This document shows, piece by piece, positions 12 to 60,227 of a stretch of 64,000 nucleotides of DNA; position 1 is the first letter of the stretch, and each line of letters opens with the position of its first letter. The DNA comes from Rufibacter roseus (GTDB taxonomy: Bacteria > Bacteroidota > Bacteroidia > Cytophagales > Hymenobacteraceae). The stretch is from contig NZ_LRML01000005.1 of NCBI RefSeq assembly GCF_001647285.1, positions 1-64,000 on the forward strand, written 5' to 3'. The translations under genes were made by a program, and so were the position numbers. The notes below the pieces were generated by a model, which had not been told where the DNA came from, did not search any database, and saw only the letters and a program-made list of their open reading frames with translations.

Positions 12-47
12 GTTTTAAGCCTCTTTTCCGGAAATCGGCGCCAAAAC
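12..47. repeat. Family A palindrome, copy 1
   Basis: A 36-nt imperfect palindrome runs from GTTTT to AAAAC with a short A/T-rich centre. It lies beyond the 3' end of the DUF2480 gene. The right arm is more diverged than the left. Confidence 0.75.
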
Positions 48-66
48 ACACCCTCTCCATATGCAA

Positions 67-101
67 GAAGGGGAGGCAAGCTTTCGCCTGCCTCCCCTTC
101 C
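67..101 (-). terminator. Hairpin terminator after the DUF2480 gene
   Basis: A 12-bp perfect stem (GAAGGGGAGGCA / TGCCTCCCCTTC) with a 10-nt loop sits just past the minus-strand stop at 124. The U-tract is weak. Confidence 0.6.
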
Positions 102-123
102 TAATCTTTGATTGAATATTTGT

Positions 124-648
124 TTACGCTGTGGCTGCTTTATCCTTTGGCTTTTTATATATAGGTACAGTAGAACAAGGCTCTCCATACATTATACTGC
201 TCGCCACTGGTAAAAGCTTCTGCATAATTTCTACGTAAGCAAAGGTGGGTATTGGTATTTGCCCGCACCCTTTAATCACCAGTTTTGCGTCTTTATAGTC
301 TTCAGGGTTAATATTGGCAATGGCATCTTGCATTAATGCCTGTTCTAACGCCTCTAAATCTCCAAAAACGAAGCGATTCACGTAAGGCTGCATCTTACTT
401 GCTAATAACATATATGCCCATGTTGGCACAATGGCATCGGTGGAGCAGATAATGGCAACGTTCTTTCCTTCATACTGCGACCAGTCGTGCTCCTTTACAA
501 ACGCTCTAAAGTCTTTCTCTCTCAACATGAGCCCGTGAAAGAGATTATCTTTTATATCGTAGACTATTCTCTCCCCTGGGTGCAGGTACTCTTCCAAGTT
601 CAATGTAATAAGTCCGCTGTTGGCTACTCTGTTTACAAACTCTTCCAT
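124..648 (-). CDS. DUF2480 family protein
   Basis: A 174-residue soluble protein that I recognise as DUF2480, a Bacteroidota family of unknown function. Typical segments are visible: an N-terminal VNRVANSGLITLNLEEY, then LREKDFRAFV.EHDWSQYEGK, then CSTDAIVPTWAYMLL. There is no signal peptide or membrane segment. The ATG at 648 lies 4 nt after the tsaB stop, so the two genes should be co-transcribed from the tsaB promoter, with a hairpin at 67-101 ending the unit. The pairing with a tRNA-modification gene suggests a housekeeping role, but no function can be assigned. Confidence 0.85.
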   Translation of the reverse strand: MEEFVNRVANSGLITLNLEEYLHPGERIVYDIKDNLFHGLMLREKDFRAFVKEHDWSQYEGKNVAIICSTDAIVPTWAYMLLASKMQPYVNRFVFGDLEALEQALMQDAIANINPEDYKDAKLVIKGCGQIPIPTFAYVEIMQKLLPVASSIMYGEPCSTVPIYKKPKDKAATA

Positions 649-652
649 ATTC

Positions 653-1342
653 TTATTTGCCTGATGGCTTTGTGATATGCACTTCTTTTAAATAGAACGG
701 CTCATAGTAAGCCACATCTTCAAACTCTTTGTTTTGCCATTTATTCCAAGCCAGCTCGCCTATGGCTTTGGCTGTAGGCATAACATTATCTATATAGTAT
801 GCGTTCGGGTGGTCGGTTAGAATTTTTTGGGCTTTAGTGGCGCCACTTCCAAAAAAAATAACGGCCTGCTTTTCCAACTCCTCCGCAAAAGCGGCGGAAG
901 TTAAAATCCTAGGCTCCGTTGGGAGCACTACATTTAAATTCTCATCTACAAGACAGGTGTACACTTCGTCACGGCGCGCGTCTACCATAGGGCAGAACAA
1001 GAATTGCTGAGGATTAGGGGTAGCTGAAATTACCTGCTGGGCCATGGCTGCCAAGGTATCTACGGCTATGAGCGGCAAATCCAGAGAAAAGCAAAAGCCT
1101 TTTGCTGTTCCGGAACCAATTCGTAAGCCGGTGTAGGATCCTGGCCCACCTGAAACAGCCACCGCCGATATGTCTTCTATTGCCACCTTAGCATTGTCAA
1201 GCACCTGCTTCACCATTACGGTTATGTGCGAAGAATGCGACTTCTCCATCTGCAACTCTGCGTATGACTGCAGATGCTGGTCTTTATGCAAAGCCACTGA
1301 GCAAACCGTGGAGGATGTTTCTATAGATAAAATTAGCGCCAT
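653..1342 (-). CDS. tsaB: tRNA threonylcarbamoyladenosine biosynthesis protein TsaB
   Basis: A 229-residue TsaB (YeaZ) protein, a non-catalytic ASKHA-fold partner of TsaD in making t6A37 on ANN-decoding tRNAs. The N-terminal ILSIETSSTVCSVAL strand-turn and the SGGPGSYTGLRIG loop at about residues 64-76 are diagnostic. Length is normal for the family. A likely -7 box, TAGCTTTG on the minus strand at 1375-1382, lies about 33 nt upstream of the ATG. The DUF2480 gene follows after 4 nt. Confidence 0.95.
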   Translation of the reverse strand: MALILSIETSSTVCSVALHKDQHLQSYAELQMEKSHSSHITVMVKQVLDNAKVAIEDISAVAVSGGPGSYTGLRIGSGTAKGFCFSLDLPLIAVDTLAAMAQQVISATPNPQQFLFCPMVDARRDEVYTCLVDENLNVVLPTEPRILTSAAFAEELEKQAVIFFGSGATKAQKILTDHPNAYYIDNVMPTAKAIGELAWNKWQNKEFEDVAYYEPFYLKEVHITKPSGK

Positions 1343-1374
1343 GCTTTCAGGTACAGGTAATCAGCATTTTCACA

Positions 1375-1382
1375 CAAAGCTA
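1375..1382 (-). promoter_or_regulatory. Bacteroidota -7 box for tsaB
   Basis: The minus strand reads TAGCTTTG, matching TAnnTTTG, with a TTG 21 nt further upstream. It lies between the ctpA terminator and the tsaB start. Confidence 0.55.
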
Positions 1383-1394
1383 CGTTATTCTAAT

Positions 1395-1429
1395 GCAAAA
1401 GGGCAACTGCTGTGCAGTTGCCCTTTTGC
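1395..1429 (-). terminator. Terminator after the S41 protease gene
   Basis: A perfect 15-16-bp stem (GCAAAAGGGCAACTGC and its complement) with a very short loop. The stem ends in a T-rich flank in both directions. It lies 22 nt past the protease stop. Confidence 0.8.
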
Positions 1430-1450
1430 TCACTACTATATATAGGTATA

Positions 1451-3109: not shown

Positions 3110-3142
3110 ATCAGCAGTAATAAAAACAAAAAAGGGAGGAGA

Positions 3143-5964: not shown

Positions 5965-6019
5965 CTAGTACGGACTGGCCAAACCCTGCCCGTACTAGAA
6001 TCTGAGAATTTAGAAACTC

Positions 6020-6055
6020 GTTTTGGGTCTGTTTTCTGAAAAGTAGCCCCAAAAC
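6020..6055. repeat. Family A palindrome, copy 4
   Basis: A 36-nt copy, 56 nt past the M61 stop and 62 nt before the next start, in a tandem gap. Confidence 0.8.
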
Positions 6056-6116
6056 AGCTGCATGTGGCCTGATAGATTTCCCCGAACTTCTATAACTTGG
6101 GCAAAACTTGAATTGT

Positions 6117-7053: not shown

Positions 7054-7232
7054 TGGCGCAAGCGTCCGCTTGTGTCCGCACGCTTATCTGATGTTAAAAC
7101 TCTGAAATTACTCTTGTTCTGGCAACCGCAGTTTTAGTTGTTGGTGAGAACACACAACAACGGCAGAGGACAAAGCTGGCGCAGTCGATAATCTTTTGCA
7201 ATGCTTACGGACACAAGCGTCTGCTTGCGCCA
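7054..7232. repeat. Family G element with 25-nt inverted arms
   Basis: The left arm 7054-7078 (TGGCGCAAGC...GCTTGTGTCCG) and right arm 7208-7232 are inverted copies differing at only a few central positions. They enclose about 130 bp that includes a family C unit. The structure resembles a small non-autonomous element, but no target-site duplication is obvious. Confidence 0.65.
7133..7195. repeat. Family C repeat (TTGTTGGTG...), copy 1
   Basis: TTGTTGGTGAGAACACACAA and the following CGGCAGAGGACAAAGC align along about 60 nt with 49813-49880. The core is palindromic (TTGTTGGTG / CACACAACAA). Confidence 0.6.
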
Positions 7233-8559: not shown

Positions 8560-8574
8560 TCAATAAGCCATAAT

Positions 8575-8617
8575 AAAACAGAGAAGGCCACTGAATATCA
8601 GTGGCCTTCTCTGTTTT
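8575..8617. terminator. Bidirectional terminator between convergent genes
   Basis: A perfect 20-bp stem (AAAACAGAGAAGGCCACTGA and its complement) with a 3-nt loop. It serves the STAS-like gene and the PfkB kinase gene. Confidence 0.85.
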
Positions 8618-8626
8618 ATGCCTTCT

Positions 8627-8662
8627 GTTTTGAGCTTGTTTTCAGAAAAACAGGCTCAAAAT
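8627..8662. repeat. Family A palindrome, copy 6
   Basis: A 36-nt copy in a tail-to-tail gap, 10 nt past the minus-strand kinase stop. The arms share the compensated GAG/CTC variant. Confidence 0.8.
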
Positions 8663-8671
8663 GACTATAAA

Positions 8672-10666: not shown

Positions 10667-12007
10667 CTACCTGCTAAACATCACTCGCTCTCCACGCTTA
10701 CTCTCATCAAACTGGCCATTCTTATAAGCCAAGTGCCCAGATACAATAGTATGTGTCACCACGCCCGGCAACTCCTGCCCTTCCAGCGGAGACCAGCCGC
10801 ACTTGTAGTGAATATTATTCTTGGCAACAGCTTGAGTTTGCTCCAGGTCTACCAACACCAAGTCAGCCCAGTAGCCTTCTCTAATGAACCCACGCTTTTC
10901 TACCTGAAAACAGATGGCCGGAGCATGACACATTTTCTCCACCACCCTTTCCAAAGGAATTTTGCCTTGCTTGTAAAACGCCAGCATGACCTGCAGTGAG
11001 TGCTGAACCAGCGGTAAGCCTGATGGAGCTCCTTTGTAAGTATTGGCCTGCTTTTCCTCCCAGGTGTGAGGGGCATGGTCGGTGGCAATGATGTCTAGTC
11101 TATTGTCTAGCAACCCCTGAAACAGCGCCTGTTTGTGCCTTGCCTCTTTAATGGCCGGGTTACATTTAATCTGGCTGCCCAGCGTTTCATATTGAGCAGC
11201 GTCAAACCAAAGATGGTGCACGCACACTTCGGCGGTGATTCGTTTCTGCTCTAGTGGAACATCGTTCCGGAACAGGGCCAGTTCTTCTTCGGTGCTGATG
11301 TGCAGAATGTGCAGGCGCGTGTTGTGTTTTTTGGCCAGCTCCACCGCCATGCTGGATGATTTGTAGCAAGCCTCCACATTCCGGATAAGCGGGTGCGCAC
11401 TCATAGGAATATTGCCCTCGCCGTACTCTTCGGTAAACCGCTGGGTAGTGGCTCTAATAGTGGCCTCGTCCTCGCAGTGCGTGGCAATAAGCATAGGCGA
11501 CTGCTTGTAAATAGCCTCCAGCGTTTCTGGGTTATCTACCAGCATGTTGCCTGTGCTGGAGCCCATAAACAACTTTATGCCACAAACAGTACGCGGGTCG
11601 GTCTTCAGGATTTCCTCCAGATTGTCATTGGTGCCACCCATGAAGAACGAGTAATTGGCCAACGATTTTTGCGCCGCTGTGTCATATTTTTGCTGCAGCA
11701 GCTCCTGCGTAGTAGCGTTGGGCACCGTGTTCGGCATCTCCATAAACGTAGTCACGCCACCGGCCACGGCTGCTCTGGGCTCTGTGTACAAATCAGCTTT
11801 GTGGGTAAGGCCTGGGTCACGGAAATGAACCTGATCATCAATAATACCCGGCAGCAGGTACTGACCTTGAGCATCTATTACCGTGTCGGCAACTGAGTTC
11901 AGGTTTTGACCAATGGTGTGGATGAGGCCATCTTTGACAAACACATCAGAAGTGGTGATCTGACCTTCGTTGACTAGTTGGGCGTTTTTGATGAGGATGC
12001 TGTTCAT
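10667..12007 (-). CDS. pyrC: Dihydroorotase
   Basis: A 446-residue amidohydrolase that cyclises carbamoyl-aspartate to dihydroorotate in pyrimidine synthesis. I start at ATG 12007 (MNSILIKNAQ); the longer frame has no homologous N-terminus. Metal-site motifs are GIIDDQVHFRDPG at 54-66, GIKLFMGSSTG (carbamylated Lys candidate), THCEDE, HILHIST and ATDHAPH. The first His of the usual HxH motif is Gln59 here, while His61 is kept. This may be typical of the Bacteroidota enzyme. A tail near the C-terminus (GQELPGVV) is normal for the family. Confidence 0.9.
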   Translation of the reverse strand: MNSILIKNAQLVNEGQITTSDVFVKDGLIHTIGQNLNSVADTVIDAQGQYLLPGIIDDQVHFRDPGLTHKADLYTEPRAAVAGGVTTFMEMPNTVPNATTQELLQQKYDTAAQKSLANYSFFMGGTNDNLEEILKTDPRTVCGIKLFMGSSTGNMLVDNPETLEAIYKQSPMLIATHCEDEATIRATTQRFTEEYGEGNIPMSAHPLIRNVEACYKSSSMAVELAKKHNTRLHILHISTEEELALFRNDVPLEQKRITAEVCVHHLWFDAAQYETLGSQIKCNPAIKEARHKQALFQGLLDNRLDIIATDHAPHTWEEKQANTYKGAPSGLPLVQHSLQVMLAFYKQGKIPLERVVEKMCHAPAICFQVEKRGFIREGYWADLVLVDLEQTQAVAKNNIHYKCGWSPLEGQELPGVVTHTIVSGHLAYKNGQFDESKRGERVMFSR

Positions 12008-13729: not shown

Positions 13730-13765
13730 ATTTTTGGCCTCTTTTCATAAAAATAGGCCAAAAAC
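13730..13765. repeat. Family A palindrome, copy 8
   Basis: A 36-nt copy whose arms read TTTTTGGCCT / AGGCCAAAAA, a fully compensated variant. It overlaps the outer edge of the next terminator hairpin. Confidence 0.78.
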
Positions 13766-14864: not shown

Positions 14865-15524
14865 TTATTTCTTCGCGCCGAAGGCCAGATCACCGGCGTC
14901 ACCAAGTCCTGGTACAATATAGGCGTTCTCATTCAGGCGTTCATCTAAGGCGCCCACCCATAGTTCTGCCTCCGGTATTTCCTGTTGTAAATGCGCCGCT
15001 CCCTCAGGGCTGGCAATAATGGCGGCAATAATAATTCGCTTGGGGGTACCAAATCTCAGCATGTCTCGGTACGTGAGCACCAAAGACTTACCAGTGGCCA
15101 GCATGGGGTCTACCAGAATGAGCACTTTGTCTTGCAGGTTGGGGGCGGCCATGTAATCTAAGTGCACCGCCAGCTGCCGTTCACCATCTCCTTCTACTCT
15201 ATAGGCACCCACGAAGGCGCAGGTGGCTTGGTCAAAGTAATTCATGAACCCCTGATGGAAAGGCAAGCCCGCCCGTAGCACCGTGGCTAGCACCGGAAAT
15301 TCGGTGAGCAGCGTTTGCTGCGTCTGGGCCAGGGGCGTCTGGATAGTCTTTTCGGCAAACTCCAGCGTTTCAGAGATTTTATACGCCATCACTTCGCCCA
15401 AACGCTCCAGGTTGCGCCGGAACCGCAGACTATCTTTCTGCACCGTAACATCGCGCAGCTCAGATATAAAATGATTGGCTAACGAAGGCGTTTGCGTAAG
15501 GATGTGAAGACGTTTCGGGTCCAT
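14865..15524 (-). CDS. upp: Uracil phosphoribosyltransferase
   Basis: A 219-residue salvage enzyme that makes UMP from uracil and PRPP. The PRPP loop ILVDPMLATGKS is at about 138-149. TVLRAGLPFHQGF and the C-terminal uracil-binding YIVPGLGDAGD are both present. The ATG at 15524 lies inside the upstream FemAB-like gene, whose stop is at 15479, so the two overlap by 46 nt in different frames. No internal ATG would restore a full-length enzyme, so the overlap looks real and suggests coupled translation. Confidence 0.95.
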   Translation of the reverse strand: MDPKRLHILTQTPSLANHFISELRDVTVQKDSLRFRRNLERLGEVMAYKISETLEFAEKTIQTPLAQTQQTLLTEFPVLATVLRAGLPFHQGFMNYFDQATCAFVGAYRVEGDGERQLAVHLDYMAAPNLQDKVLILVDPMLATGKSLVLTYRDMLRFGTPKRIIIAAIIASPEGAAHLQQEIPEAELWVGALDERLNENAYIVPGLGDAGDLAFGAKK

Positions 15525-16438
15525 AGGTAGGCGGCAGGTAAGTTTTGGAAACTTAAAGATAGATATGGAACGGGTTGCGCGCCAAAGTTGGCGTAAAATT
15601 TCGCCACGCCCGGCACTTCGCTTCCCTCAAAATCAAAGGTTTTTCCAGAGCCAGCCTCTTGCTGAATCAGCTGGTCCATGAGAAAAGCCATAGCATTTAG
15701 TTGCCTACCTTTTTCAGAACTTGCCCCAAACAAATAAGTGATACGGGTACCGTCGTGCAGAAAAAAACCGATGCAGAGCACCTCTTGCTGCTGCCTTACC
15801 TCCCACAACTGCCCCACTCCCGCCTGCTGCGCATTATGGAATAACTGGCTAAGCCGTTTATATTCTTTCGCCTTCAGTTCACCCAGCTCTTTGCCTTTGG
15901 TATTCTGGAACAGTTGCAGCAGCTTATCAAAAGAGGCTGCTCTACCAATGTTTAGCTGAGCAGCCTGCGCCTTTTTCAGGTTCCGTTTCAGGTTAGTGGC
16001 ACAAGCACGGTACAGCTCAGGGTAAGTAGGCGCTAAAGAAAGCTCATAATTTGGCCTTAACCTGGCGCTCCAGTTTTTGGGCAGATGTAGTTCTACCTCT
16101 GGCTGCGGCAACTGGTACTGCACCTGGGCAAAGTGCGGCGGAAGTAAAGAGAGGTATTCTGAAACAGAACGGTGTTGGCTGGCTTGGGTGCAGAACAAGC
16201 CAAGCTGCTGCGTGAACAAGGGCTGAAACACCATCTGCTTCCCCAGTACTTTCTTGATAGGCAACGGAAAAACAGACACATACGCGTCCTTCTGCACTTC
16301 CACCAAAGCCTGCCAGTTTGGTCCGCAAACAGCATCTAAATACCACGCATGGGCATATACCAGCGGCCTCTCCGCCTTTTGCAGGCAAGTTTCCCAAAGG
16401 GCTTTGTCTATGTCTTGATAGCGAAGCAGCTGTATCAT
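15479..16438 (-). CDS. FemAB/GNAT-fold acyltransferase-like protein
   Basis: A 319-residue protein with the tandem GNAT layout of FemAB/peptidoglycan-bridge or CelD-like proteins. The N-terminal half has VYAHAWYLDAVCG, and the central ARLRPNYELSL...ATNLKRNLKKA segment is typical. The second half has ITYLFGASSEKGRQLNAM and FDFEGSEVPGVAKFYANFGA, the common end of the fold. The substrate is unknown. Its 3' end overlaps upp by 46 nt. A family A palindrome lies in the divergent gap upstream. Confidence 0.7.
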   Translation of the reverse strand: MIQLLRYQDIDKALWETCLQKAERPLVYAHAWYLDAVCGPNWQALVEVQKDAYVSVFPLPIKKVLGKQMVFQPLFTQQLGLFCTQASQHRSVSEYLSLLPPHFAQVQYQLPQPEVELHLPKNWSARLRPNYELSLAPTYPELYRACATNLKRNLKKAQAAQLNIGRAASFDKLLQLFQNTKGKELGELKAKEYKRLSQLFHNAQQAGVGQLWEVRQQQEVLCIGFFLHDGTRITYLFGASSEKGRQLNAMAFLMDQLIQQEAGSGKTFDFEGSEVPGVAKFYANFGAQPVPYLSLSFQNLPAAYLWTRNVFTSLRKRLR

Positions 16439-20326: not shown

Positions 20327-20328
20327 TA

Positions 20329-23663: not shown

Positions 23664-24353
23664 ATGAAAAAACTTTTACTTCTGGCTGTCTTTAGTTTGT
23701 CTTGTGTGTGTGGGCATGCGCAAACTGGTTTCTCCCTAGGCGTTAAAGCCGGCGGTAATTACACTGGGTTTACTGGTGAAGATGTACCCGCAGAAGCAAA
23801 ATATAAATTCGGTTTTCATGCAGGCGCCATTATTGAATATGCCCTTACACCGTCTCTCTCTATCAGACCAGAAATGCTGTATTCGCTCAAAGGCACCAGT
23901 ATGAAATTTATGGGCCCAGACTGGGAAAGCATTAACTGGGAAACGGTTAATTGGGAAGAGTACATGGCAGACCCAGAAGGCTACGAATTTGAAGTTGGCG
24001 AGAAAGAGTATCATTTTAAAGAAACTCTACATTACATTGACGTACCGGTTCTGGCTCATTATAAAGTAGGAAATCTTTTCTTACAGGCTGGTCCTACCGC
24101 TTCCTTTTTCATTTCTTCTAAATCAGAACTTGATGGTGACTCTACCCCTGACGATGAAGAAACCGCCGGAGGCAACGATTATAGAAAAGTTGATTTTGGT
24201 TATGCCTTAGGGATTGGCTATCAATTAAGCCATGGACTAGAAGTTAGCGCCAGGTATAACGGCGGAATAACCAACGTAGACAAAAACAACAACTACAAAG
24301 CTAAAAACTCAGTGTTTCAGCTTTCTTTAGCTTACATAGTTGGCAAAAATTAG
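23664..24353 (+). CDS. Outer-membrane beta-barrel protein, tandem paralogue 1 of 6
   Basis: A 229-residue member of the PF13568-type outer-membrane barrel group. The signal peptide ends at HAQ (about residue 20). The barrel opens with FSLGVKAGGNYTGFTGED and includes the shared strands SIRPEMLYSLKGT, HYIDVPVLAHYKVGNLFLQAGP and VDFGYALGIGYQLSHGLEVSARYNGGI. A unique acidic insertion with repeated W-E pairs (about 93-110) is absent from the others. No terminator follows it, unlike its neighbours. Confidence 0.82.
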   Translation: MKKLLLLAVFSLSCVCGHAQTGFSLGVKAGGNYTGFTGEDVPAEAKYKFGFHAGAIIEYALTPSLSIRPEMLYSLKGTSMKFMGPDWESINWETVNWEEYMADPEGYEFEVGEKEYHFKETLHYIDVPVLAHYKVGNLFLQAGPTASFFISSKSELDGDSTPDDEETAGGNDYRKVDFGYALGIGYQLSHGLEVSARYNGGITNVDKNNNYKAKNSVFQLSLAYIVGKN

Positions 24354-24510
24354 TAGATTCAGTTACTGCATACGTGTTAAGGAAAGCAACACAGTCACTA
24401 TCACCTGAGCACTAACTTTATGGCACCAGCCAATATAGGAGTAGTCAATATTATTTATTATATCGCAGCCCAATCATCACTCAACCCAACCCTTTTCAAA
24501 CACTTACTTC

Positions 24511-25092
24511 ATGAAAAAATTATTATTCTTTGTTGCAACTCTGTTTACAGTTTCACTTGCCCAAGCGCAGGATGGTATCAAACTTGGCTTAAAAGCTGGT
24601 GTTAACATAGCCTCTATGGCCGGTGATGATGCTGACGATATCACTAATAAATTCGGTTTCCATATTGGAGGTTTTGCAGATTACGGTATATCTGAAATGG
24701 TGTCAATCCGTCCAGAACTCCTGTACTCAACAAAGGGCGCGACATCTGAAGAAAATGATGATGCAAGCTTCAACCTAAACTACATTGACGTTCCTGTATT
24801 AGCTCGTATCAAAGCAGATAAACTTTTCTTTGAGTTTGGCCCTACATTTTCTTTTTTGGTGAAAGCAGAGGTATCAGATGGAGATGTTTCTATAAATGTG
24901 AAAGATGCAACTAGAGGTTTTGATTTTGGTTATGCTGCCGGACTCGGGTACCAATTCACAGAGCAAATTGGCTTAGGCCTGAGATACAACGGTGGTTTAA
25001 CAAACATCTTTGAAGAAGAAGATGGTGAATCGCTTGCGGAAGTTCGTAATTCTGTTTTCCAAGTCTCTTTAAGCTACTCTTTTGGGAGATAA
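24511..25092 (+). CDS. Outer-membrane beta-barrel protein, tandem paralogue 2 of 6
   Basis: A 193-residue protein, the shortest and most AT-rich type, closely related to paralogue 3. The signal peptide is MKKLLFFVATLFTVSLAQAQ. Shared strands are GIKLGLKAGVNIASM, KFGFHIGGFADYG, MVSIRPELLYSTKGA, NYIDVPVLARIKADKLFFEFGP and GLGLRYNGGL. It ends SFGR with the usual aromatic-rich final strand (VFQVSLSYSFG) for barrel insertion. Confidence 0.85.
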   Translation: MKKLLFFVATLFTVSLAQAQDGIKLGLKAGVNIASMAGDDADDITNKFGFHIGGFADYGISEMVSIRPELLYSTKGATSEENDDASFNLNYIDVPVLARIKADKLFFEFGPTFSFLVKAEVSDGDVSINVKDATRGFDFGYAAGLGYQFTEQIGLGLRYNGGLTNIFEEEDGESLAEVRNSVFQVSLSYSFGR

Positions 25093-25098
25093 TTATGA

Positions 25099-25142
25099 AA
25101 CACTCTGCTAGGGTGCTATATGGGTATTCCTAGCAGAGTGTT
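25099..25142 (+). terminator. Terminator after barrel paralogue 2
   Basis: A perfect 14-bp stem AACACTCTGCTAGG and its complement with a 16-nt loop. The T-tract is short. Confidence 0.7.
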
Positions 25143-25334
25143 ACATTAGCGACAGCTCCTATAAACTGCGGCTACTCACTTTTCTTTCTTTTAGCAGCAT
25201 TTCTTTTAGGCCACCTTACATGTATATTTTATGACATGTGTAGTACTTACAAGTAGGTATAGGAGCAGACCAAAAAAAATTAAAAATTAGCAACTGAAAT
25301 ATTTCAAACTTTTAACCCTTAAAACCCTTTATTT

Positions 25335-25925
25335 ATGAAAAAACTACTTCTTTTTGTTGTAGCACTATTTACCATATCTTTTGCCCAAGCGCAAGGTGGT
25401 ATTAAGTTAGGCTTGAAAGCCGGTGGAAACTTAAGCAATATTACTGGAGATGACACTGAAGACTCCAAAAACAAATTTGGTTTTCATGTAGGCGGATTCG
25501 TTGATTTTGGCGTTTCTGACATGGTTTCTATTCGCCCCGAAGTTTTATACTCTATGAAGGGAGCTACCGGAGAAGGAGATGGAGATAGCGACATGAGCCT
25601 TAACTTAAACTATATTGATGTTCCGATTATGGCTCGCATCAATGCTGATAAGCTTTTCTTTGAATTTGGTCCTACCATCTCTTTCTTAGTTAAATCAGAA
25701 GCAGAAATGGGAGATTTGTCTGTAGACTTCAAAGATTACACTAATACTGTTGATTTTGGATATGCTGCTGGACTAGGTTATAACATCAGTGATAATATTG
25801 GTCTAGGGCTGAGATACAATGGCGGATTATCGAAAGTCTTCAAAGATAATGAAGATGCAGATTTTGGAGATGTTCGTAACTCAGTATTCCAACTTTCTTT
25901 GAGCTTCTCATTAGGTGGCAGATAA
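25335..25925 (+). CDS. Outer-membrane beta-barrel protein, tandem paralogue 3 of 6
   Basis: A 196-residue sister of paralogue 2, with the same signal peptide form (SFAQAQ) and matching strands (GIKLGLKAGGNLSNI, KFGFHVGGFVDFG, SIRPEVLYSMKGA, KLFFEFGPTISFLVKSE). The differences are mainly in acidic loops (EGDGDSD, EDSKN), as expected for surface-exposed turns. Confidence 0.85.
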   Translation: MKKLLLFVVALFTISFAQAQGGIKLGLKAGGNLSNITGDDTEDSKNKFGFHVGGFVDFGVSDMVSIRPEVLYSMKGATGEGDGDSDMSLNLNYIDVPIMARINADKLFFEFGPTISFLVKSEAEMGDLSVDFKDYTNTVDFGYAAGLGYNISDNIGLGLRYNGGLSKVFKDNEDADFGDVRNSVFQLSLSFSLGGR

Positions 25926-25936
25926 GAAATATTAAC

Positions 25937-25988
25937 CACATTCAACAAAAAAGGGGTGCTAAAATTAGCACCCTTTTTGTTGAATGTG
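25937..25988 (+). terminator. Terminator after barrel paralogue 3
   Basis: A long stem of more than 20 bp (CACATTCAACAAAAA..GGGTGCTAA, written in parts) with a minimal loop. The descending side includes TTTTTGTT. Confidence 0.85.
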
Positions 25989-26183
25989 CACTAGTAGTCA
26001 GCGGTTTGTATTAAAAGAAAATTTAAAAGAGACATAATTGTAGTTTTCCTATTCTGCACAGCCACAAGTCTTTCATTACTCCACTACAAGTAAAATACCA
26101 ACTTTTTTATCAGAAAGCGTATAAAGAAGCATTTTACATGGTAGCCACTTTTTGCTACATGAATAACTTTAATGCGTAACACT

Positions 26184-26837
26184 ATGAAAAAGATTGTATT
26201 ATTCTTAGCAGCAGCTTTATCCTTTTCGGTTGCACAGGCACAAAACGGTCCACGTATTGGTCTTAAAGCAGGTGTAAACTACTCTAATTTATCTGGCGAT
26301 TTAAAAGAGGACAGGTATGAAAACAAAATTGGTTTTGTGGGGGGTATCACCGCTAACTTTCCTCTAACGAGTGACAACTTCTTGTCTATTCAGCCTGAAC
26401 TGCTCTTCTCTCAAAAAGGGTATAAGTATCGGGACATAGAATACAAAAACGCCATGAACCAAACCATTAAAAACAAAGGTGAAGTAAGCTATAATTACCT
26501 TGATCTGCCTATTTTATTACGTGTAAATGCGGGTGGTTTATTTTTTGAGGGAGGTCCCCAGGTTTCTTACCTGTTAGGAATTAAGGATAATACAGAAGTA
26601 AGTGTAGATGGAGACACGTTTAGAGAAACATCCACCAAAATAGACAAAGATAATCTAGCCGAAATAGAAATAGGTTACGCCGCCGGTATTGGGTACCAAA
26701 CCGGCAATGGACTTAGCCTTGGCTTGCGCTACAACGGCAGCATCAACTCTTTAGCTAAAAACGACGGTGATGAACTGGCCAATGCCCGTCACTCCGTTTT
26801 CCAGCTAACTTTAGGATTTATGATTCCTAGAAAATAA
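26184..26837 (+). CDS. Outer-membrane beta-barrel protein, tandem paralogue 4 of 6
   Basis: A 217-residue barrel. I use ATG 26184, which gives the same signal peptide start as its siblings; an ATG at 26172 is possible. It forms a second subgroup with paralogues 5 and 6: GPRIGLKAGVNYSNLSGDL, NKIGFVGGITANFPL, LSIQPELLFSQKGY, NYLDLPILLRVNAGGLFFEGGP and GLRYNGSINSLAKNDGDEL. Confidence 0.85.
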   Translation: MKKIVLFLAAALSFSVAQAQNGPRIGLKAGVNYSNLSGDLKEDRYENKIGFVGGITANFPLTSDNFLSIQPELLFSQKGYKYRDIEYKNAMNQTIKNKGEVSYNYLDLPILLRVNAGGLFFEGGPQVSYLLGIKDNTEVSVDGDTFRETSTKIDKDNLAEIEIGYAAGIGYQTGNGLSLGLRYNGSINSLAKNDGDELANARHSVFQLTLGFMIPRK

Positions 26838-26854
26838 AGTCTATGCCTTAAATG

Positions 26855-26896
26855 AAAACAATAAATGCTCTGCTAGTGCGGGGCATTTGTTGTTTT
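26855..26896 (+). terminator. Terminator after barrel paralogue 4
   Basis: An imperfect 14-19-bp stem built on AAAACAATAAATGC and GCATTTGTTGTTTT. Confidence 0.65.
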
Positions 26897-27029
26897 ATGG
26901 ACGCACTTTTAATTTTTGAAAACAAGCAAAGTTGATCGTCACAACTAACTTTTTCGCTTCAAACCGTATATAGGAGCATTTTAACCTTGTACGCCTAACA
27001 CAAGGCTCCCTTACCTAATCGATACTACT

Positions 27030-27686
27030 ATGAAGAAGAATGTATTATTTTTAGCATTAGCAGCAGCTTTATCTTTTTCGGTTGCTCAAGCACAAACCGG
27101 ACCACGCATTGGTCTTAAAGCAGGGGTTACTTATTCAAATCTTGCTGGCAATTTAGAAAACGAAGATATCTATAAGAATAGGCTTGGGTTTGTAGGAGGT
27201 CTTACAGCTAACCTGCCTTTAGCTGCCGACGGCTTTCTTTCCATTCAACCAGAACTGTTATACACACAGAAAGGATACACCTACCGTGATCAAGCCTTTA
27301 CTCTGGGTACAGAAAACATAACCCGCCAGGGAGACGTCATCTTCAATTATGTAGAGCTACCGGTGTTCTTGAGAGTTAACACAGGAGTACTTTATTTTGA
27401 GGCTGGTCCACAAGTATCTTATCTCGTGCATATCACCAATGAATCTGAAGAACGCATAGGCAACAGCAGCTTTGAGCAGTCTAACAGAATAAACAAAGAC
27501 AACATGGCGGAGTTTGAAATAGGCTATGGAGCAGGTTTAGGACTGCAAACTCCAGGTGGCTTCAACTTAAACTTGCGCTACAACGGCAGCATTAACTCAT
27601 TAGCTAAAGAAAATAACGATGAGCTGACCAATGGTCGTCATTCAGCATTTCTGCTTACTATTGGCTACATGTTCCCGGGCAGATAA
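27030..27686 (+). CDS. Outer-membrane beta-barrel protein, tandem paralogue 5 of 6
   Basis: A 218-residue close relative of paralogue 4: same signal peptide ending SVAQAQTGPRIGLKAG and the shared GFVGGLTANLPL, FLSIQPELLYTQKGY, LNLRYNGSINSLAKENNDEL and a final LLTIGYMFPGR. The extended loops between strands are where it differs most. Confidence 0.85.
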   Translation: MKKNVLFLALAAALSFSVAQAQTGPRIGLKAGVTYSNLAGNLENEDIYKNRLGFVGGLTANLPLAADGFLSIQPELLYTQKGYTYRDQAFTLGTENITRQGDVIFNYVELPVFLRVNTGVLYFEAGPQVSYLVHITNESEERIGNSSFEQSNRINKDNMAEFEIGYGAGLGLQTPGGFNLNLRYNGSINSLAKENNDELTNGRHSAFLLTIGYMFPGR

Positions 27687-27715
27687 TATCAATTCTGCAG
27701 TAACTTCAAGTTTTT

Positions 27716-27748
27716 CACAAATGCTCTGCCAAACGCAGAGCATTTGTG
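27716..27748 (+). terminator. Terminator after barrel paralogue 5
   Basis: A perfect 14-bp stem CACAAATGCTCTGC and its complement with a 5-nt loop. Confidence 0.8.
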
Positions 27749-27863
27749 TTTAATGAGCTAGTCCAAAATAAAACAGCCTCGTATACTTATCCTAAAGCAA
27801 AACAGGCACAGTGTTTGAGTAAGTATTTCCAGTGAATGGAACTTTTATCTTAATTTTTGAACC

Positions 27864-28538
27864 ATGAAAAAATTACTTTTTCTATTTGCGGCGGTGGTTG
27901 TGTCTTATACAACACAGGCCCAAGCAACTTTCGGACTTAAAGGCGGGCTAAACTACTCTAACCTTTCTGGCGATTTAAAAGACGAAGAGCGTTTTAACAA
28001 CAAGATAGGCTATAATGCCGGTATTTTTTTAAATGCTCCCATTGTTGGTGATTTCTTCTCTATTCAGCCAGAAGTACTGTATTCTAACAAAGGGTACAGG
28101 TACGATGACAAGGTAGTTAGCACTGTTCAGACACCTGTAGTAGGAGCCGGTGAAGAATATAGATATGAGGGCTCAGCCAACTTTAACTATATTGATGTAC
28201 CAGTGCTAGCTCGCGTAAAAGCGGGTCCTATCTTTTTTGAGGCTGGTCCGCAAGTATCTTACCTGGTTAGTGTGAACGATAAAACCAAACAGTACAACAA
28301 CAGAACCGGAGAATTGATAACAAGAAATACCAGTGAGAAAAGCAAAGAAGGCTACTCTGATTTTGAAGTAGGGTATGCGGCTGGTATTGGTTTTGCCACC
28401 CAAGGCGGTATTAGCTTAGGCCTCCGTTATACCGGCGCATTTACCGAACTTACCGACGATTCCCCTACCCGCGGAGATTTCAAAAATGCCCGTCATTCTG
28501 TGTTTCAGCTACAAGTAGGTTTCCCAATTAGCAGATAG
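27864..28538 (+). CDS. Outer-membrane beta-barrel protein, tandem paralogue 6 of 6
   Basis: A 224-residue barrel with signal peptide ending TQAQA. Strands ATFGLKGGLNYSNLSGDL, FSIQPEVLYSNKGYRY, NFNYIDVPVLARVKAGPIFF and GISLGLRYTGAFTEL place it between the two subgroups. Long polar loops carry NNRTGEL and SPTRGDFKN. It ends with a strong terminator and is the last of the six. Confidence 0.85.
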   Translation: MKKLLFLFAAVVVSYTTQAQATFGLKGGLNYSNLSGDLKDEERFNNKIGYNAGIFLNAPIVGDFFSIQPEVLYSNKGYRYDDKVVSTVQTPVVGAGEEYRYEGSANFNYIDVPVLARVKAGPIFFEAGPQVSYLVSVNDKTKQYNNRTGELITRNTSEKSKEGYSDFEVGYAAGIGFATQGGISLGLRYTGAFTELTDDSPTRGDFKNARHSVFQLQVGFPISR

Positions 28539-38339: not shown

Positions 38340-38385
38340 AGTATCTAGGTTTATCAAATAAAACGGCCACCTTTAAAGTAGCTGC

Positions 38386-38421
38386 GTTTTTAGGTTCTTT
38401 TCTGAAAAACAGGCCTAAAAC
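38386..38421. repeat. Family A palindrome, copy 14
   Basis: A 36-nt copy of the GCG/CGC subfamily, 47 nt upstream of tpiA and 84 nt past the YiiX-like gene. Confidence 0.8.
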
Positions 38422-38504
38422 GCGTTGGGTAAAAACTTAACCAATACGTTCAGTGGCCGCTAAGTTAGTGATTTCAGTTTTAAGTCTTTGCAAGACTAAA
38501 GCCG

Positions 38505-48186: not shown

Positions 48187-49338
48187 ATGAAAACATCATT
48201 CCTTACCTATAGCTTAGCCGGACTTTTTCTGTTTTCGGCCTGTTCTGAGAAAAACAGCCCGGAAACGGGAGACACCACACCATCTGAAGCGGCCACTACC
48301 GAGCAGCTCACGCTTACCCAACAGCAGCGGCAGAATGTGGGCATTGAACTAGGTGCCGCCTCGCAGCAGCGCCTGGGCAGCACCTTACAACTTTCCGGCG
48401 AAGTAGACGCTCCGCCCACCAGCGTGGTGAGCGTGTCGGTGCCCTACGGCGGTTTTGTGAAAACTATGAACCTGCTGCCGGGCCAGCACATCCGCAAGGG
48501 GCAAGTACTGGCCACCCTGCAGCACCAAGATTATGTGCAGCTGCAGCAGGATTACCTAGATACCCGCGCCCGTTTGGAATTGGCTAATCTTGAATATAAG
48601 CGCCAGCAGGAACTGACGGAGGAGAAAGTGAGTGCCCTGAAAAACCTGCAGCAAGTGCGTACCGAGCGTGAGGTGCTGCAGAACAGCCTGGCCGCCCTCC
48701 GCGAAAAACTGCTCATGATAAACATTAACCCCGCACGTCTGCAGAACGGCAACATCACCCGCACCATCAGAGTCACCTCACCCTTTAACGGTTTTGTGCG
48801 GAACACTTTTGCCAACGTAGGTAAAATGGTCAACGCCTCTGATGTGCTGTTTGAACTGGTGAACACCGATGACCTGCACCTGAAACTGAACGCGTTCCAG
48901 CAAGACGTACCCTACCTGCGCCCCGGCCAACACCTCACCTACACGTTACCTGATGACCCTAAAACCCGCACGGCTGAAATTATCTTAGTAGGCCACAGCG
49001 TAGAGGGCGACAACACCATCCCCGTCCATGCCCACCTTCAAAACCACGACGAGCACCGTTTGCTGCCGGGCATGTACGTCACCGCCACCGTTCAGCTGGA
49101 AGAAAGAGCCGTCACCGCGCTACCTGAGTCTGCCGTGGTGCAATTCAAAGGCAACTTTTTTGTTTTTGCTGAATCAGGAAGCGGTCAATTTGAGCGGATA
49201 GAAGTAAAAACCGGCCTTAAAGGCAACGGCTATGTAGAAGTGCAGCTGCCCGCGGAGTTGCAAAATTCTAACAGAATTGTGTTGAAAGGCGCCTATAATC
49301 TGCTGGCCATGCAGGAGAACAAGGAGGAGGAAGAGTAG
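48187..49338 (+). CDS. RND efflux periplasmic adaptor lipoprotein (CzcB/CusB-like)
   Basis: A 383-residue adaptor that links the pump to its channel. ATG 48187 lies 2 nt after the pump stop. The signal ends at a lipobox FSAC (Cys19). Next come a biotinyl-lipoyl half-motif (SVPYGGFVKTMNLLPGQHI), a helical hairpin (about 115-180), the second lipoyl half (IRVTSPFNGFVRNTFANVGK), a beta-barrel and a membrane-proximal domain with RLLPGMYVTATVQL. Bases 48231-48266, encoding residues 15-27 including the lipobox, match the intergenic family A palindrome. Confidence 0.92.
   Translation: MKTSFLTYSLAGLFLFSACSEKNSPETGDTTPSEAATTEQLTLTQQQRQNVGIELGAASQQRLGSTLQLSGEVDAPPTSVVSVSVPYGGFVKTMNLLPGQHIRKGQVLATLQHQDYVQLQQDYLDTRARLELANLEYKRQQELTEEKVSALKNLQQVRTEREVLQNSLAALREKLLMININPARLQNGNITRTIRVTSPFNGFVRNTFANVGKMVNASDVLFELVNTDDLHLKLNAFQQDVPYLRPGQHLTYTLPDDPKTRTAEIILVGHSVEGDNTIPVHAHLQNHDEHRLLPGMYVTATVQLEERAVTALPESAVVQFKGNFFVFAESGSGQFERIEVKTGLKGNGYVEVQLPAELQNSNRIVLKGAYNLLAMQENKEEEE
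48231..48266 (+). repeat. Family A palindrome inside the adaptor gene
   Basis: Exactly 36 nt, with left arm GTTTTCGGCCT as in copies 5 and 9 and a right arm ending GGAAAC. It is read as L-F-S-A-C-S-E-K-N-S-P-E-T and so supplies the lipobox of the adaptor lipoprotein. Confidence 0.7.
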
Positions 49339-53056: not shown

Positions 53057-53198
53057 CTTTGTTGGTGTTCTCACCAACAAACCATTTAGCGGCCCAAGTT
53101 GAAATTTCTCAGATTTCTGTTTTTCAGAAGAAAGCCTTATCTAATCTTTCGGCTTACAGACGGAGTTATACTTGTTGGTGATAACACCAACAAGGGCT
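53057..53198. repeat. Two family C-type cores (TTGTTGGTG... )
   Basis: TTTGTTGGTGTTCTCACCAA (53057 on) and CTTGTTGGTGATAACACCAA (53175 on) are short palindromes sharing the TTGTTGGTG core of families at 7133 and 49813. Confidence 0.6.
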
Positions 53199-57591: not shown

Positions 57592-57608
57592 CCCCCTTCA
57601 CTGATTCT

Positions 57609-57644
57609 GTTTTAGGCTTCTTTTTGAAAAATCAAGCTTAAAAC
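57609..57644. repeat. Family A palindrome, copy 21
   Basis: A 36-nt copy with extended flanks (TTCTG / CAGAA), 18 nt past the YitT stop. Confidence 0.82.
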
Positions 57645-57781
57645 AGAAGCTATACTTCTTATTGAACACTTTTGGTTCAGTTTTTGAGGCAAAAGCATAA
57701 GTATAGTTTTACTCTTCATCAGTCTGCGGGGCAGGCGTTTGAAAAAAGCTAAAAAAATATTTATACATAAACCTTTGCCCA

Positions 57782-58493: not shown

Positions 58494-58698
58494 CCTGGTA
58501 CAATATCTTTACAACGAGCTGCCCAGACGGCAGCGCCTTCAACTGGAACAGGCCTTAATGGTAGACCAGGAGTTGGCGGAAAGCTGTACCGACTTACTCC
58601 TGGCCCAACTTAGCCTGGACAATGCCTTCCGGCAGCCCAGCGATAAGGTAACCAACGCTATCATTAGTTATTCCAAAACTGTAAGTTTGCATCCGTAA
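58468..58698 (+). CDS. Small protein overlapping the sigma gene (possible anti-sigma or partner)
   Basis: A 76-residue, mostly helical, soluble protein. It begins inside the sigma gene (26-nt overlap, different frame), so translation should be coupled. DLVQYLYNELPRRQRLQLEQ and QELAESCTDLLLAQLSL resemble the N-terminal helices of ZAS-type anti-sigma proteins. The usual zinc-binding His-Cys-Cys set is absent and there is no membrane anchor. It is therefore a partner by position only. Confidence 0.7.
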   Translation: MTKTFTQNDLVQYLYNELPRRQRLQLEQALMVDQELAESCTDLLLAQLSLDNAFRQPSDKVTNAIISYSKTVSLHP

Positions 58699-58710
58699 CC
58701 GGATGCTAGC

Positions 58711-58738
58711 AAAAGCACCAGTTAATAGCTGGTGCTTT
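58711..58738. terminator. Terminator after the sigma operon
   Basis: A stem AAAAGCACCAG / CTGGTGCTTTT with a 7-nt loop, then T-rich sequence. The minus-strand lipoprotein gene stops 9 nt away, so it may act both ways. Confidence 0.8.
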
Positions 58739-58746
58739 TTTTGTGC

Positions 58747-59301
58747 TTAGTCTATTCTGGTGATGGATTTGCCGTTGGGGAACAATAACTGGATGACACC
58801 ATGCTCTCTATTATAATACATGGTGGCTGTATCGCTTAAATATGGAGTGCCTGGTTTAAAAGCCCTTATAGAATAAACATCTTTATAGGTTATTCCATTT
58901 ATTACTTTTGAAGATAATCTTGGTGAGAAAACTGCAGACCCAGATACAGTATAGTTATTGAACTGAATATTAAGCCCCCCAGCACCTGGATAAGAAATTA
59001 CTTCTGCACCAAGCGCAACAAATAAATACCCAGCTCCAGAAAAAGTAACTCTGTATTTTTCCTGAAACGTGTTTGTTGGGCCCATCATACCATTAAACTC
59101 GTAAAAATATCTTTCGTATTCAGTTTGCTTATATATGCCAACAACATTGTTGGTGTCTATAAACTTAATACTTTGCCCCTCATGATAACTCACAAAATCC
59201 AGTTCTCCTTCTGTAAATTTATTATAATCAGCCGGAGGGGTAATGCAAGAGCATAAACCTAAGAGAACGAAAGCAATAATAACTTTGCAAACCTTTAACA
59301 T
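58747..59301 (-). CDS. Hypothetical lipoprotein
   Basis: A 184-residue protein. The N-terminal VIIAFVLLGLCSC is a lipobox (LGLC or LCSC), suggesting a lipid-anchored envelope protein. The mature part is beta-rich with many Tyr, Asn and Gly. No domain is recognised. It is transcribed convergently with the sigma operon. Confidence 0.7.
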   Translation of the reverse strand: MLKVCKVIIAFVLLGLCSCITPPADYNKFTEGELDFVSYHEGQSIKFIDTNNVVGIYKQTEYERYFYEFNGMMGPTNTFQEKYRVTFSGAGYLFVALGAEVISYPGAGGLNIQFNNYTVSGSAVFSPRLSSKVINGITYKDVYSIRAFKPGTPYLSDTATMYYNREHGVIQLLFPNGKSITRID

Positions 59302-59360
59302 GCCAGCTGTCTGTTTACTTTTTAAATAATCTCCTCTGATTCTATTTACAAAAAATTACC

Positions 59361-59387
59361 AAGAACAGCTATTTTAAAAGCCTTGCG
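59361..59387. repeat. Short dispersed repeat AAGAACAGCTATTTTAAA, copy 2
   Basis: An 18-nt exact match to 20444-20461, then partial similarity. It lies upstream of the lipoprotein and nth genes. Confidence 0.4.
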
Positions 59388-59513
59388 GTCAGAAACAACA
59401 TAAACCACCTTTGCATGAGAGGTTGCCAAAATTAAAATAGCAGATTAACATGTAAGTAAACTCAGTTCAACACTTTTACATAAGTTTGCTTATCTATTTA
59501 TTATAATTTACGC

Positions 59514-60188
59514 ATGCGCAAACCTGAACGCTATCTTCATTTAATCTCATATTTTACCCAAAACTTCCCTGAGCCTGAAACAGAACTGGCTTACCGCAAT
59601 CCTTATGAGTTGCTGATTGCCGTAGTACTCAGCGCCCAATGCACCGATAAGCGGGTGAACCTAGTAACTCCTGCGCTCTTTGAAGCTTATCCTTCGGCAG
59701 AGATCTTAGCAACAGCCACATCTGAAGATATCTTTCCATTCATCAAGAGCATCTCGTACCCCAACAACAAAGCCAAGCATTTGGCAGGACTGGGCAAAAT
59801 GCTGGTGGAACGGTTTGGTGGTGAAGTACCCAGTACCATAGAAGAATTACAGCAGTTGCCAGGAGTAGGAAGAAAAACGGCTAACGTAATTGCATCGGTT
59901 ATCTTTAACATGCCCGCCATGGCCGTAGACACCCACGTGTTTAGAGTGTCAAAACGTTTGGGCTTAGTAAGCGCCAAAGCCAAAACACCGCTGGAGGTAG
60001 AAAAGGAGCTGATGAAGAATACCCCTTTAGAACTAGTGCCAAAGGCGCACCACTGGCTTATTTTACATGGCCGCTACATCTGCACTGCCAGGGTTCCGCA
60101 GTGCGAGAAATGCCCCCTCACCCACTTCTGCCACTATTATGAAAAGAACTGGCCCAATAAGCCTGATGACCCGCAGAATAAATTGTAG
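59514..60188 (+). CDS. nth: Endonuclease III
   Basis: A 224-residue DNA glycosylase/AP lyase that removes oxidised pyrimidines. The helix-hairpin-helix LPGVGRKTANVIAS carries Lys121, and Asp139 in AVDTHVFRV is the second catalytic residue. The iron-sulphur motif CTARVPQCEKCPLTHFC has the expected C-x6-C-x2-C-x5-C spacing. A TAAGTTTG box at 59481-59488 may be its -7 element. Confidence 0.96.
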   Translation: MRKPERYLHLISYFTQNFPEPETELAYRNPYELLIAVVLSAQCTDKRVNLVTPALFEAYPSAEILATATSEDIFPFIKSISYPNNKAKHLAGLGKMLVERFGGEVPSTIEELQQLPGVGRKTANVIASVIFNMPAMAVDTHVFRVSKRLGLVSAKAKTPLEVEKELMKNTPLELVPKAHHWLILHGRYICTARVPQCEKCPLTHFCHYYEKNWPNKPDDPQNKL

Positions 60189-60191
60189 TAC

Positions 60192-60227
60192 GTTTTAGAG
60201 CTAGTTTTAAGAAAAGAGGCTGAAAAT
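60192..60227. repeat. Family A palindrome, copy 22
   Basis: A 36-nt copy only 4 nt past the nth stop and 71 nt before the next start. The arms carry several mismatches. Confidence 0.7.

What the first reader, a model, noticed from the sequence alone, without database searches (positions are those of the whole stretch)
12..60227. About 24 copies of a co-varying 36-nt palindrome (family A) in most larger gaps
Seen directly: copies at 12, 3893, 4148, 6020, 7266, 8627, 12044, 13730, 16511, 18407, 21751, 31186, 37481, 38386, 39257, 42445, 43604, 50031, 53010, 55208, 57609 and 60192, plus two in coding sequence (48231 and 36428). The pattern is GTTTT-nnn-CCT, a TTTTTCTGAAAAA-like centre, AGG-nnn-AAAAC. 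Eighteen of 22 intergenic copies are exactly 36 nt. Arm bases change in pairs (for example GACCT/AGGTC at 43604 and GGCCT/AGGCC at 13730), and outer flanks are either GCG...CGC or CTG...CAG. Compensated change indicates selection for symmetry (RNA hairpin or dimeric protein site) or spread of a palindromic element. Copies lie in convergent, tandem and divergent gaps, so a pure terminator role does not fit.
Basis: partly seen in the sequence, partly recalled or inferred. Interest (0 to 1): 0.75.

Follow-up and report, generated by a model that had tools for sequence, protein, structure and literature searches.

The report
Genus-wide palindromic DNA site between genes
A 40-base mirror-image DNA sequence recurs between genes in this bacterium and its 15 sampled relatives, is often kept in the same places by evolution, and looks more like a DNA landmark at the ends of gene units than like a wandering repeat or an RNA hairpin.

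Summary
An 881-kb sample implies about 1,850 per genome. 16 of 16 genus genomes carry it; 496 kb of five other genera gave 0.

Compensated arm changes are not above shuffles in the window and modest in 457 copies, though clear in 42 near-perfect ones. The half-site spacer is rigid (4 nt in 284 of 302) and T-boxes nearly invariant. Copies favour transcription-unit boundaries: convergent gaps of 100 nt or more 60/70, tandem 143/269, tandem under 50 nt 3/133. Offsets to neighbouring codons are often kept across species with 73-83% protein identity. Hairpins abut the stop side in 40/230 flanks, the start side in 3/203.

Best reading: a selected duplex-DNA dyad site, probably protein-bound, at gene-unit ends. 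It lacks the REP tag and clustering; a RAYT link is not shown. Protein and function are unproven.

The parts
10..49 (.). family A copy
   Evidence: 41.1 bits
3891..3930 (.). family A copy, divergent gap
   Evidence: 41.2 bits
4146..4185 (.). family A copy, divergent gap
   Evidence: 49.3 bits; strict pattern
6018..6057 (.). family A copy, tandem gap; copy in 4 of 4 other genomes where that gap was found
   Evidence: 45.4 bits
7264..7303 (.). family A copy, convergent gap; absent from 8 of 8 other genomes where that gap was found (the gap is also longer here)
   Evidence: 43.7 bits
8573..8619 (+). terminator-like hairpin directly before the family A copy at 8625
8625..8664 (.). family A copy, convergent gap; copy in 11 of 11 other genomes, 0-2 nt after the stop in 10 of them (7 nt here)
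   Evidence: 44.2 bits
12042..12081 (.). family A copy, divergent gap; 33-34 nt from the - gene start as called, in 9 genomes
   Evidence: 39.0 bits
   Evidence: 25.9 bits
13728..13767 (.). family A copy, convergent gap, abutting hairpin
   Evidence: 46.5 bits
16509..16548 (.). family A copy, upstream of the gene at 16653; copy in 13 of 13 other genomes where that gap was found
   Evidence: 49.7 bits
18405..18444 (.). family A copy, tandem gap; 49-53 nt before the next start codon in 13 of 13 genomes; hairpin just 5' of it that varies in pairs between species (by eye)
   Evidence: 39.0 bits
21749..21788 (.). family A copy, tandem gap; offsets not conserved
   Evidence: 44.7 bits
31184..31223 (.). 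family A copy inside an extended stem with A/T-rich ends (terminator-like)
   Evidence: 49.1 bits
37479..37517 (.). family A copy (39-nt variant), tandem gap; 53-58 nt from the neighbouring stop in 12 genomes
   Evidence: 22.3 bits in the 40-nt frame
38384..38423 (.). family A copy, tandem gap
   Evidence: 47.9 bits
39255..39294 (.). family A copy, tandem gap
   Evidence: 33.7 bits
42443..42482 (.). family A copy, divergent gap; copy in 4 of 4 other genomes where that gap was found
   Evidence: 44.8 bits
43601..43640 (.). family A copy, tandem gap; copy in 10 of 10 other genomes where that gap was found
   Evidence: 34.4 bits
48229..48268 (.). family A copy in coding sequence (about residue 14 of the 383-aa product); also in that gene in 9 of the 15 other genomes' regions
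   Evidence: 41.5 bits
50029..50068 (.). family A copy, convergent gap; 23 nt from the - gene stop in 6 genomes
   Evidence: 42.1 bits
53008..53047 (.). family A copy, tandem gap
   Evidence: 38.7 bits
55205..55243 (.). family A copy, 39-nt variant with a 3-nt centre
   Evidence: 7.6 bits in the 40-nt frame; aligned
57607..57646 (.). family A copy, tandem gap, 15 nt after a stop
   Evidence: 48.2 bits
60190..60229 (.). family A copy, tandem gap, 1 nt after a stop
   Evidence: 36.8 bits

Best explanation
Family A is a 40-bp dyad-symmetric duplex-DNA site, CTGTTTT n GGCCT n TTTT - 4 nt - and its mirror: two T-boxes 11 bp apart (about one helical turn) in each half. It marks many boundaries of transcription units throughout one genus. 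SHOWN: copy number, rigid geometry, base-specific conservation with little general pairing, near-restriction to the genus, boundary placement, conserved positions, and abutting hairpins almost only on the stop side. INFERRED: a dimeric or tetrameric DNA-binding protein, possibly a nucleoid or boundary protein, occupies the site and separates neighbouring units in both directions, by slowing or blocking RNA polymerase or by pinning local supercoiling. At a minority of sites the outer T-box also serves as the U-tract of an intrinsic terminator whose hairpin abuts the element. The symmetry would let one copy serve two converging units.
For: Density: 319 copies in 880,902 nt of the genome, about 1,850 per genome. 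Rigid spacer: 284 of 302 at 4 nt, 16 at 3 or 5, 2 others; in 15 other genomes 258 of 282 at 4 nt. Placement: convergent gaps of 100 nt or more 60/70, tandem 143/269, tandem under 50 nt 3/133, divergent of all lengths 25/100. Conserved presence: over 20 orthologous gaps it is far more gap-specific than chance (29.7 v null mean 3.5, maximum 9.9). Offsets: the largest cluster within 6 nt exceeds the uniform-null maximum in 10 of 13 gaps, equals it in 2 and is below it in 1; e.g. 13 of 13 genomes at 49-53 nt before a start codon. In 13 of 13 orthologous sets conserved columns (identity 0.75-0.93) exceed both adjacent 20-nt flanks (0.27-0.68). Hairpins within 10 nt: stop side 40/230, start side 3/203, shuffled 0.4 each.
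Against: No protein identified; no binding, RNA-seq or expression data. 25 of 100 divergent gaps and 31 of 319 copies called coding do not fit a pure end-of-unit role. Column pair 8/33 covaries and near-perfect palindromes are in excess, which a simple dimer site does not predict. The pairing excess is largest in tandem gaps (2997 v 2779), less in convergent (1264 v 1208) and divergent (925 v 903), absent in coding copies (362 v 385), the order an RNA role at 3' ends would give. Solitary half-sites, though few, exceed control at high scores (14 v 1 at 18 bits, 6 v 0 at 20; 29 v 27 at 14). Canonical terminators are no rarer in gaps with the element (31/76 v 7/19 convergent; 31/184 v 15/136 tandem). 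The tandem promoter-motif excess is not significant (31/118 v 19/118, p = 0.08).
Confidence: 0.5

Rival explanations
1. A REP-like or miniature mobile palindrome that spread in the ancestor of the genus and merely persists, with insertion tolerated only between transcription units.
For: REPs are also palindromic, often genus-restricted, mostly in convergent and unidirectional gaps, and some families number thousands (passages of PMC3733652). Near-perfect copies exist beside decayed ones. Gains and losses occur: gap 7020 1/9, gap 20327 15/16. A few genomes of two other genera hold isolated matches, perhaps transferred. Two of six Y1 transposase genes (L016, L017) have a copy on both sides within 260 nt.
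Against: No conserved tag next to the 40-mer. Closer to the Y1 genes lie other palindromes (by eye), themselves rare in the sample (0-2 hits for those counted). Variable columns are nearly as different between orthologs as between unrelated copies (0.477 v 0.427) while fixed columns are kept, which simple persistence does not explain.
Confidence: 0.2
2. An RNA hairpin at transcript 3' ends (terminator, or block to 3' exonucleases).
For: Stop-side preference with a peak 0-9 nt after stops; extended stems in 19 of 342 tandem and convergent copies v about 1 (orthologs counted apart); fully compensated arms in many of the gap 20327 orthologs; pairing excess largest in tandem gaps; hairpins abut the element; median folding energy about -12 kcal/mol.
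Against: Extended stem plus T-tract in only 10 of 342; G.T close to A.C in tandem copies; sense not significantly more stable than antisense (p = 0.076); T-box bases mostly fixed rather than exchanged in pairs; loop length rigid; copies also upstream of divergent genes at kept offsets; no Rfam family but tRNA matches the window.
Confidence: 0.2
3. A binding or cleavage site for gyrase or another type II topoisomerase, relieving supercoils where units end (a BIME-2 analogue).
For: Placement where positive supercoils collect, convergent above tandem above divergent; helically phased T/A tracts; a 4-bp centre. Gyrase binding of E. coli BIMEs is recalled; related papers were seen only as a listing with abstract starts.
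Against: Nothing tested here bears directly on gyrase; such strict 40-bp specificity would be unusual for a topoisomerase (recalled).
Confidence: 0.08
4. A DNA uptake sequence kept by competence, as in Neisseria or Haemophilus.
For: High genus-restricted copy number, some at terminators; phased T-tracts recall the Haemophilus signal (recalled).
Against: Uptake signals are short, non-palindromic and frequent in genes (recalled); here 31 of 319 copies are coding and offsets to codons are kept.
Confidence: 0.02

Closest known systems
REP / BIME (GTAG- and CGTC-tagged repetitive extragenic palindromes) with RAYT transposases
   Same: short palindromes, high copy, intergenic, convergent and tandem gaps preferred, genus-level families
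   Different: longer symmetric unit without a one-ended tag, mostly single per gap, no copies immediately on both sides of a RAYT-type gene, rigid half-site spacing, offsets kept across the genus
Bidirectional intrinsic terminators
   Same: lie between convergent genes; at some loci the element is the inner part or the T-tract of one
   Different: the element's own stem is followed by its AAAAC box, not a T-tract; roughly half of the copies are unpaired at each variable column pair (37-56%)
Nucleoid or boundary protein sites (general class)
   Same: rigid dyad with fixed boxes, mostly one site per boundary
   Different: about 1,850 sites of 40 bp; no protein known

Membership tests
REP (RAYT-associated) | tetranucleotide tag (GTAG or CGTC type) beside one end | tested here: not met
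   six positions on either side of 281 own-genome copies: no base above 0.42
REP (RAYT-associated) | RAYT gene flanked by copies (REPtron) | tested here: inconclusive
   6 PF01797 genes: within 150 nt a copy on one side of 2 (L020, L021), on both sides of 0; within 260 nt on both sides of 2 (L016 252/239 nt; L017 228/162 nt, one copy only 14.8 bits). About half of the longer tandem gaps are occupied anyway. Other palindromes lie closer (by eye)
REP (RAYT-associated) | clusters or head-to-head dimers (BIMEs) | tested here: not met
   113 occupied gaps in the contig: 100 with one copy, 12 with two, 1 with three
REP (RAYT-associated) | mostly intergenic, convergent and unidirectional gaps | tested here: met
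   REP statement from passages of PMC3733652
Intrinsic terminator | GC-rich RNA stem directly followed by a T-tract | tested here: not met
   extended stem with T-tract in 10 of 342 tandem and convergent copies; a separate abutting hairpin in 44 of 230 stop-side flanks
RNA hairpin element | compensatory change with G.U tolerated on the transcribed strand | tested here: inconclusive
   no excess in the window, clear in 42 near-perfect copies, modest in 457 copies, no clear strand bias
Dimeric protein-DNA site | rigid dyad spacing and base-specific boxes | tested here: met
Dimeric protein-DNA site | a cognate protein | not tested
MITE | target duplication and empty sites | tested here: inconclusive
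   two species pairs at 82-88% DNA identity; breaks near elements seen but no clean empty site
CRISPR repeat | regularly spaced array | tested here: not met
   dispersed, spacings of 108 nt to over 9 kb in the window

The most novel reading that the evidence does not exclude
The genus has evolved a general chromosome-wide boundary system: a dedicated DNA-binding protein occupies about 1,850 variants of one dyad site, at most of the longer convergent and about half of the longer tandem gene boundaries, and insulates or terminates transcription from both sides, comparable in logic to eukaryotic roadblock terminators (recalled). I know of no bacterial example on this scale; one literature search listed none.
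Probability: 0.3. Interest if true: 0.85.

Novelty: new variant of a known kind. Interest (0 to 1): 0.6.

Why it matters
Abundant extragenic palindromes are usually explained as by-products of a transposase (recalled; see also PMC3733652, passages). Here a similar look comes with strong signs of selection on position and sequence in 16 species, so it is a ready case for asking whether bacteria use dedicated DNA sites to separate neighbouring transcription units. It also shows that symmetry alone should not be read as RNA pairing: in the window the covariation claim fails its shuffle control while the site is clearly conserved.

Tried and rejected
Covariation as main evidence: not above shuffles for the 22 window copies; clear in 42 near-perfect copies; modest in the larger set.

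RAYT link: the strongest Y1_Tnp gene lies 252 nt from a strict copy, but copies occur about every 2.8 kb and about half of the longer tandem gaps hold one, so I do not count it. Other palindromes lie closer to these genes (by eye).

Promoter spacing: a peak of TAnnTTTG about 38 nt from the element came from a few orthologous loci counted many times. In the own genome alone it is spread out, so I dropped it.

Elsewhere: dyad counts in four other genera peaked at 10 or fewer, some above their shuffle, against 27 for the own genome, and none resembled family A. Among 80 loci of other taxa one chance-like 16.9-bit hit (L062). The plasmid search with the consensus gave 51 records, the 15 listed being Borreliella at E = 2. 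IMG/VR: one contig. Rfam: tRNA only.

Genus name: no tool named it. The anchor search named no member that I can recognise as one; its Pontibacter record L059 has no copy in 21 kb.

Limits: genes come from a simple caller of mine (80.6% coding in the contig). It misses some genes, e.g. 15479-16438, so some gap types and lengths are wrong. The five 20-kb own-genome stretches were picked because each holds a strong match. Model matches per genome were capped at 150 and 55 and count both strands of a palindrome, so they are not copy numbers. Orthologous copies were found by the matrix, which favours conserved ones, and the sets needed an offset cluster in at least 5 genomes. Searches count orthologs apart, so they are not independent. 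Copies near stretch ends or without a called neighbour were dropped; one search used only flanks of 25 nt or more. One search used 20 of the gaps (median 60 nt or more, at least 5 genomes) and ignores the species tree.

Mended on checking: the RAYT row is now inconclusive, offset counts restated, solitary half-sites, tandem pairing excess and one search added.


Full report
WHAT IS THERE. The window lies on contig C35 of a 5.12-Mb genome. A symmetric 40-column weight matrix, started from the window copies and refined on the contig, finds 140 sites at 12 bits or more in 380,902 nt, 136 of them at 20 bits or more, against 0-1 in six Markov shuffles and 0 in the reversed sequence. A second contig not used for training gives 142 in 400 kb. 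A sample of 880,902 nt of the own genome holds 319 copies, about 1,850 per genome. The unit reads CTGTTTT n GGCCT n TTTT nnnn AAAA n AGGCC n AAAACAG: T-boxes 11 bp apart, mirrored. No two of 139 copies compared are identical.

DISTRIBUTION. With a covariance model from the 22 window copies, 16 of 16 genomes of the genus give 110-150 matches each (both strands counted, 150 scored at most), while of 23 other genomes of the family and order 21 give none and two give 1 and 2. In 120 genomes of the family, the only matches outside the genus at E 0.001 are 1-6 per genome in 6 genomes of two genera; three of these hold two or three sites each. Direct scanning of 495,517 nt from five other genera gives 0. 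In the other 15 genus members two 20-kb regions, syntenic to parts of the window, together hold 16-25 copies per genome, 326 in all, a higher density than the own-genome sample.

PLACEMENT. In the own-genome sample, convergent gaps of 100 nt or more are occupied in 60 of 70 cases, tandem gaps of 100 nt or more in 143 of 269, tandem gaps under 50 nt in 3 of 133, divergent gaps in 25 of 100; 31 of 319 copies are called coding. The distance from a stop codon peaks at 0-9 nt. In the contig 100 gaps hold one copy, 12 two, 1 three. Where TAnnTTTG (recalled as the Bacteroidetes -7 motif) occurs in tandem gaps with a single copy, it lies between element and start 26 times and between stop and element 9 times.

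CONSERVATION. Matched proteins of the compared regions are 73-83% identical on average per genome. Presence of the element is a property of the gap: over 20 orthologous gaps the heterogeneity is 29.7 against a permutation mean of 3.5 and maximum of 9.9; for example 14/14, 14/14, 13/13 and 12/12 beside 0/14, 0/13 and 1/9. Offsets are often kept: 49-53 nt before the next start in 13 of 13 genomes, while the distance to the upstream stop runs from 56 to 475; 0-2 nt after a stop in 10; 33-34 nt in 9. Of 13 gaps tested, the offset cluster exceeds the null maximum in 10, equals it in two (5965, 43405) and falls below it in one (21556). In 13 of 13 orthologous sets the conserved columns (0.75-0.93) are more alike than both adjacent flanks, whereas variable columns are 0.477 alike within a gap and 0.427 between gaps. 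I read this as old sites under purifying selection. A coding copy at 48229, overlapping residues SACSEKN of the product, recurs in that gene in 9 of the 15 other genomes' regions.

DUPLEX DNA OR RNA. These results point to duplex DNA. The spacer is rigid (284 of 302 at 4 nt). T-box bases are mostly fixed rather than swapped in pairs. At 13 of 18 column pairs the pairing is within 0.03 of what independent half-sites would give, and the window copies show no covariation above shuffles. G.T and A.C mispairs are close on the transcript strand (95 v 89; 346 v 318), and sense and antisense energies do not differ significantly (p = 0.076). Against this, column pair 8/33 covaries, near-perfect palindromes are 88 against about 26 expected, and the pairing excess is largest in tandem gaps. 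The 42 strict copies show clear covariation. In one gap (20327) many of the orthologs have compensated arms embedded in a terminator-like stem. Copying between arms by template switching, or use of a minority of copies as RNA hairpins, could explain it; neither was tested.

TERMINATORS. Stems of at least 7 pairs begin within 10 nt of the element on the stop side in 40 of 230 flanks and on the start side in 3 of 203, 0.4 expected. In a number of them the hairpin's T-tract is the element's own CTGTTTT (compare window 8573-8664). Canonical terminators are about as frequent in gaps without the element, so the element goes with gene-unit ends but does not replace terminators.

WHAT IT IS NOT. The REP membership test fails on tag and clustering; the RAYT-flank row is inconclusive; the gap preference is REP-like (PMC3733652, passages only). 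PMC6006769 (passages) describes Bacteroidetes Y1 genes flanked by atypical secondary structures with copies elsewhere in the genome. I did not classify the Y1 genes here, so family A as such a structure is not fully excluded.

MECHANISM. Shown: a conserved, rigid dyad at transcription-unit boundaries in one genus. Inferred: a protein reads it and separates neighbouring units. Not shown: the protein, any effect on transcription, or how the family arose.

PRINT. Five library searches (Rufibacter with palindrom; RAYT with extragenic palindrom and Bacteroidetes; Hymenobacteraceae, intergenic repeat and palindrom, any two, 10 of 47 listed; Rufibacter with repeat and intergenic, none; genus-specific palindromic repeats with termination and Bacteroid, none) listed no description of this family by title or abstract start. 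The genus name is my guess and the library is open-access only, so this is weak evidence of absence.

Noticed in passing
window 53161-53187 and 7127-7153: A second palindrome family of the type CTTGTTGGTGATAACACCAACAAG; GTTGGTG...CACCAAC was counted 8 times in the 881-kb sample.
   Followed up: partly
window 13691, 20327, 49341: Stretches of TTGATTG-like repeats begin within a few bases after stop codons; at 20327 the window genome has this and no family A copy, while 15 of 15 other species have the copy.
   Followed up: partly
window 23664-28538: Six neighbouring related ORFs on the + strand (193-229 aa) sharing DNA segments, a local gene family.
   Followed up: no
L017-L021: Five Y1 transposase genes (181-185 aa) beside other palindromes, e.g. 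GGCGCGGAAGTTACTTCCGTGCC and its like on both sides in L018.
   Followed up: partly
L131 about 11472-11929: Between two family A copies in one species lies an insert of about 380 nt with long inverted repeats (CGTTTCGTCCCCCTTTGAAGGGGG...), absent from its closest sampled relative.
   Followed up: partly
L136 8437 v L139 11893 (gap orthologous to 18321): Two species about 88% identical keep the element and its right flank but have unrelated hairpins directly left of it, as if intergenic modules were exchanged at the element edge.
   Followed up: no
L181 1273-1312: An IMG/VR phage contig carries one near-perfect family A copy between two genes.
   Followed up: no
L208-L215: Two or three isolated sites in each of three genomes of another genus, perhaps horizontal transfer.
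   Followed up: no
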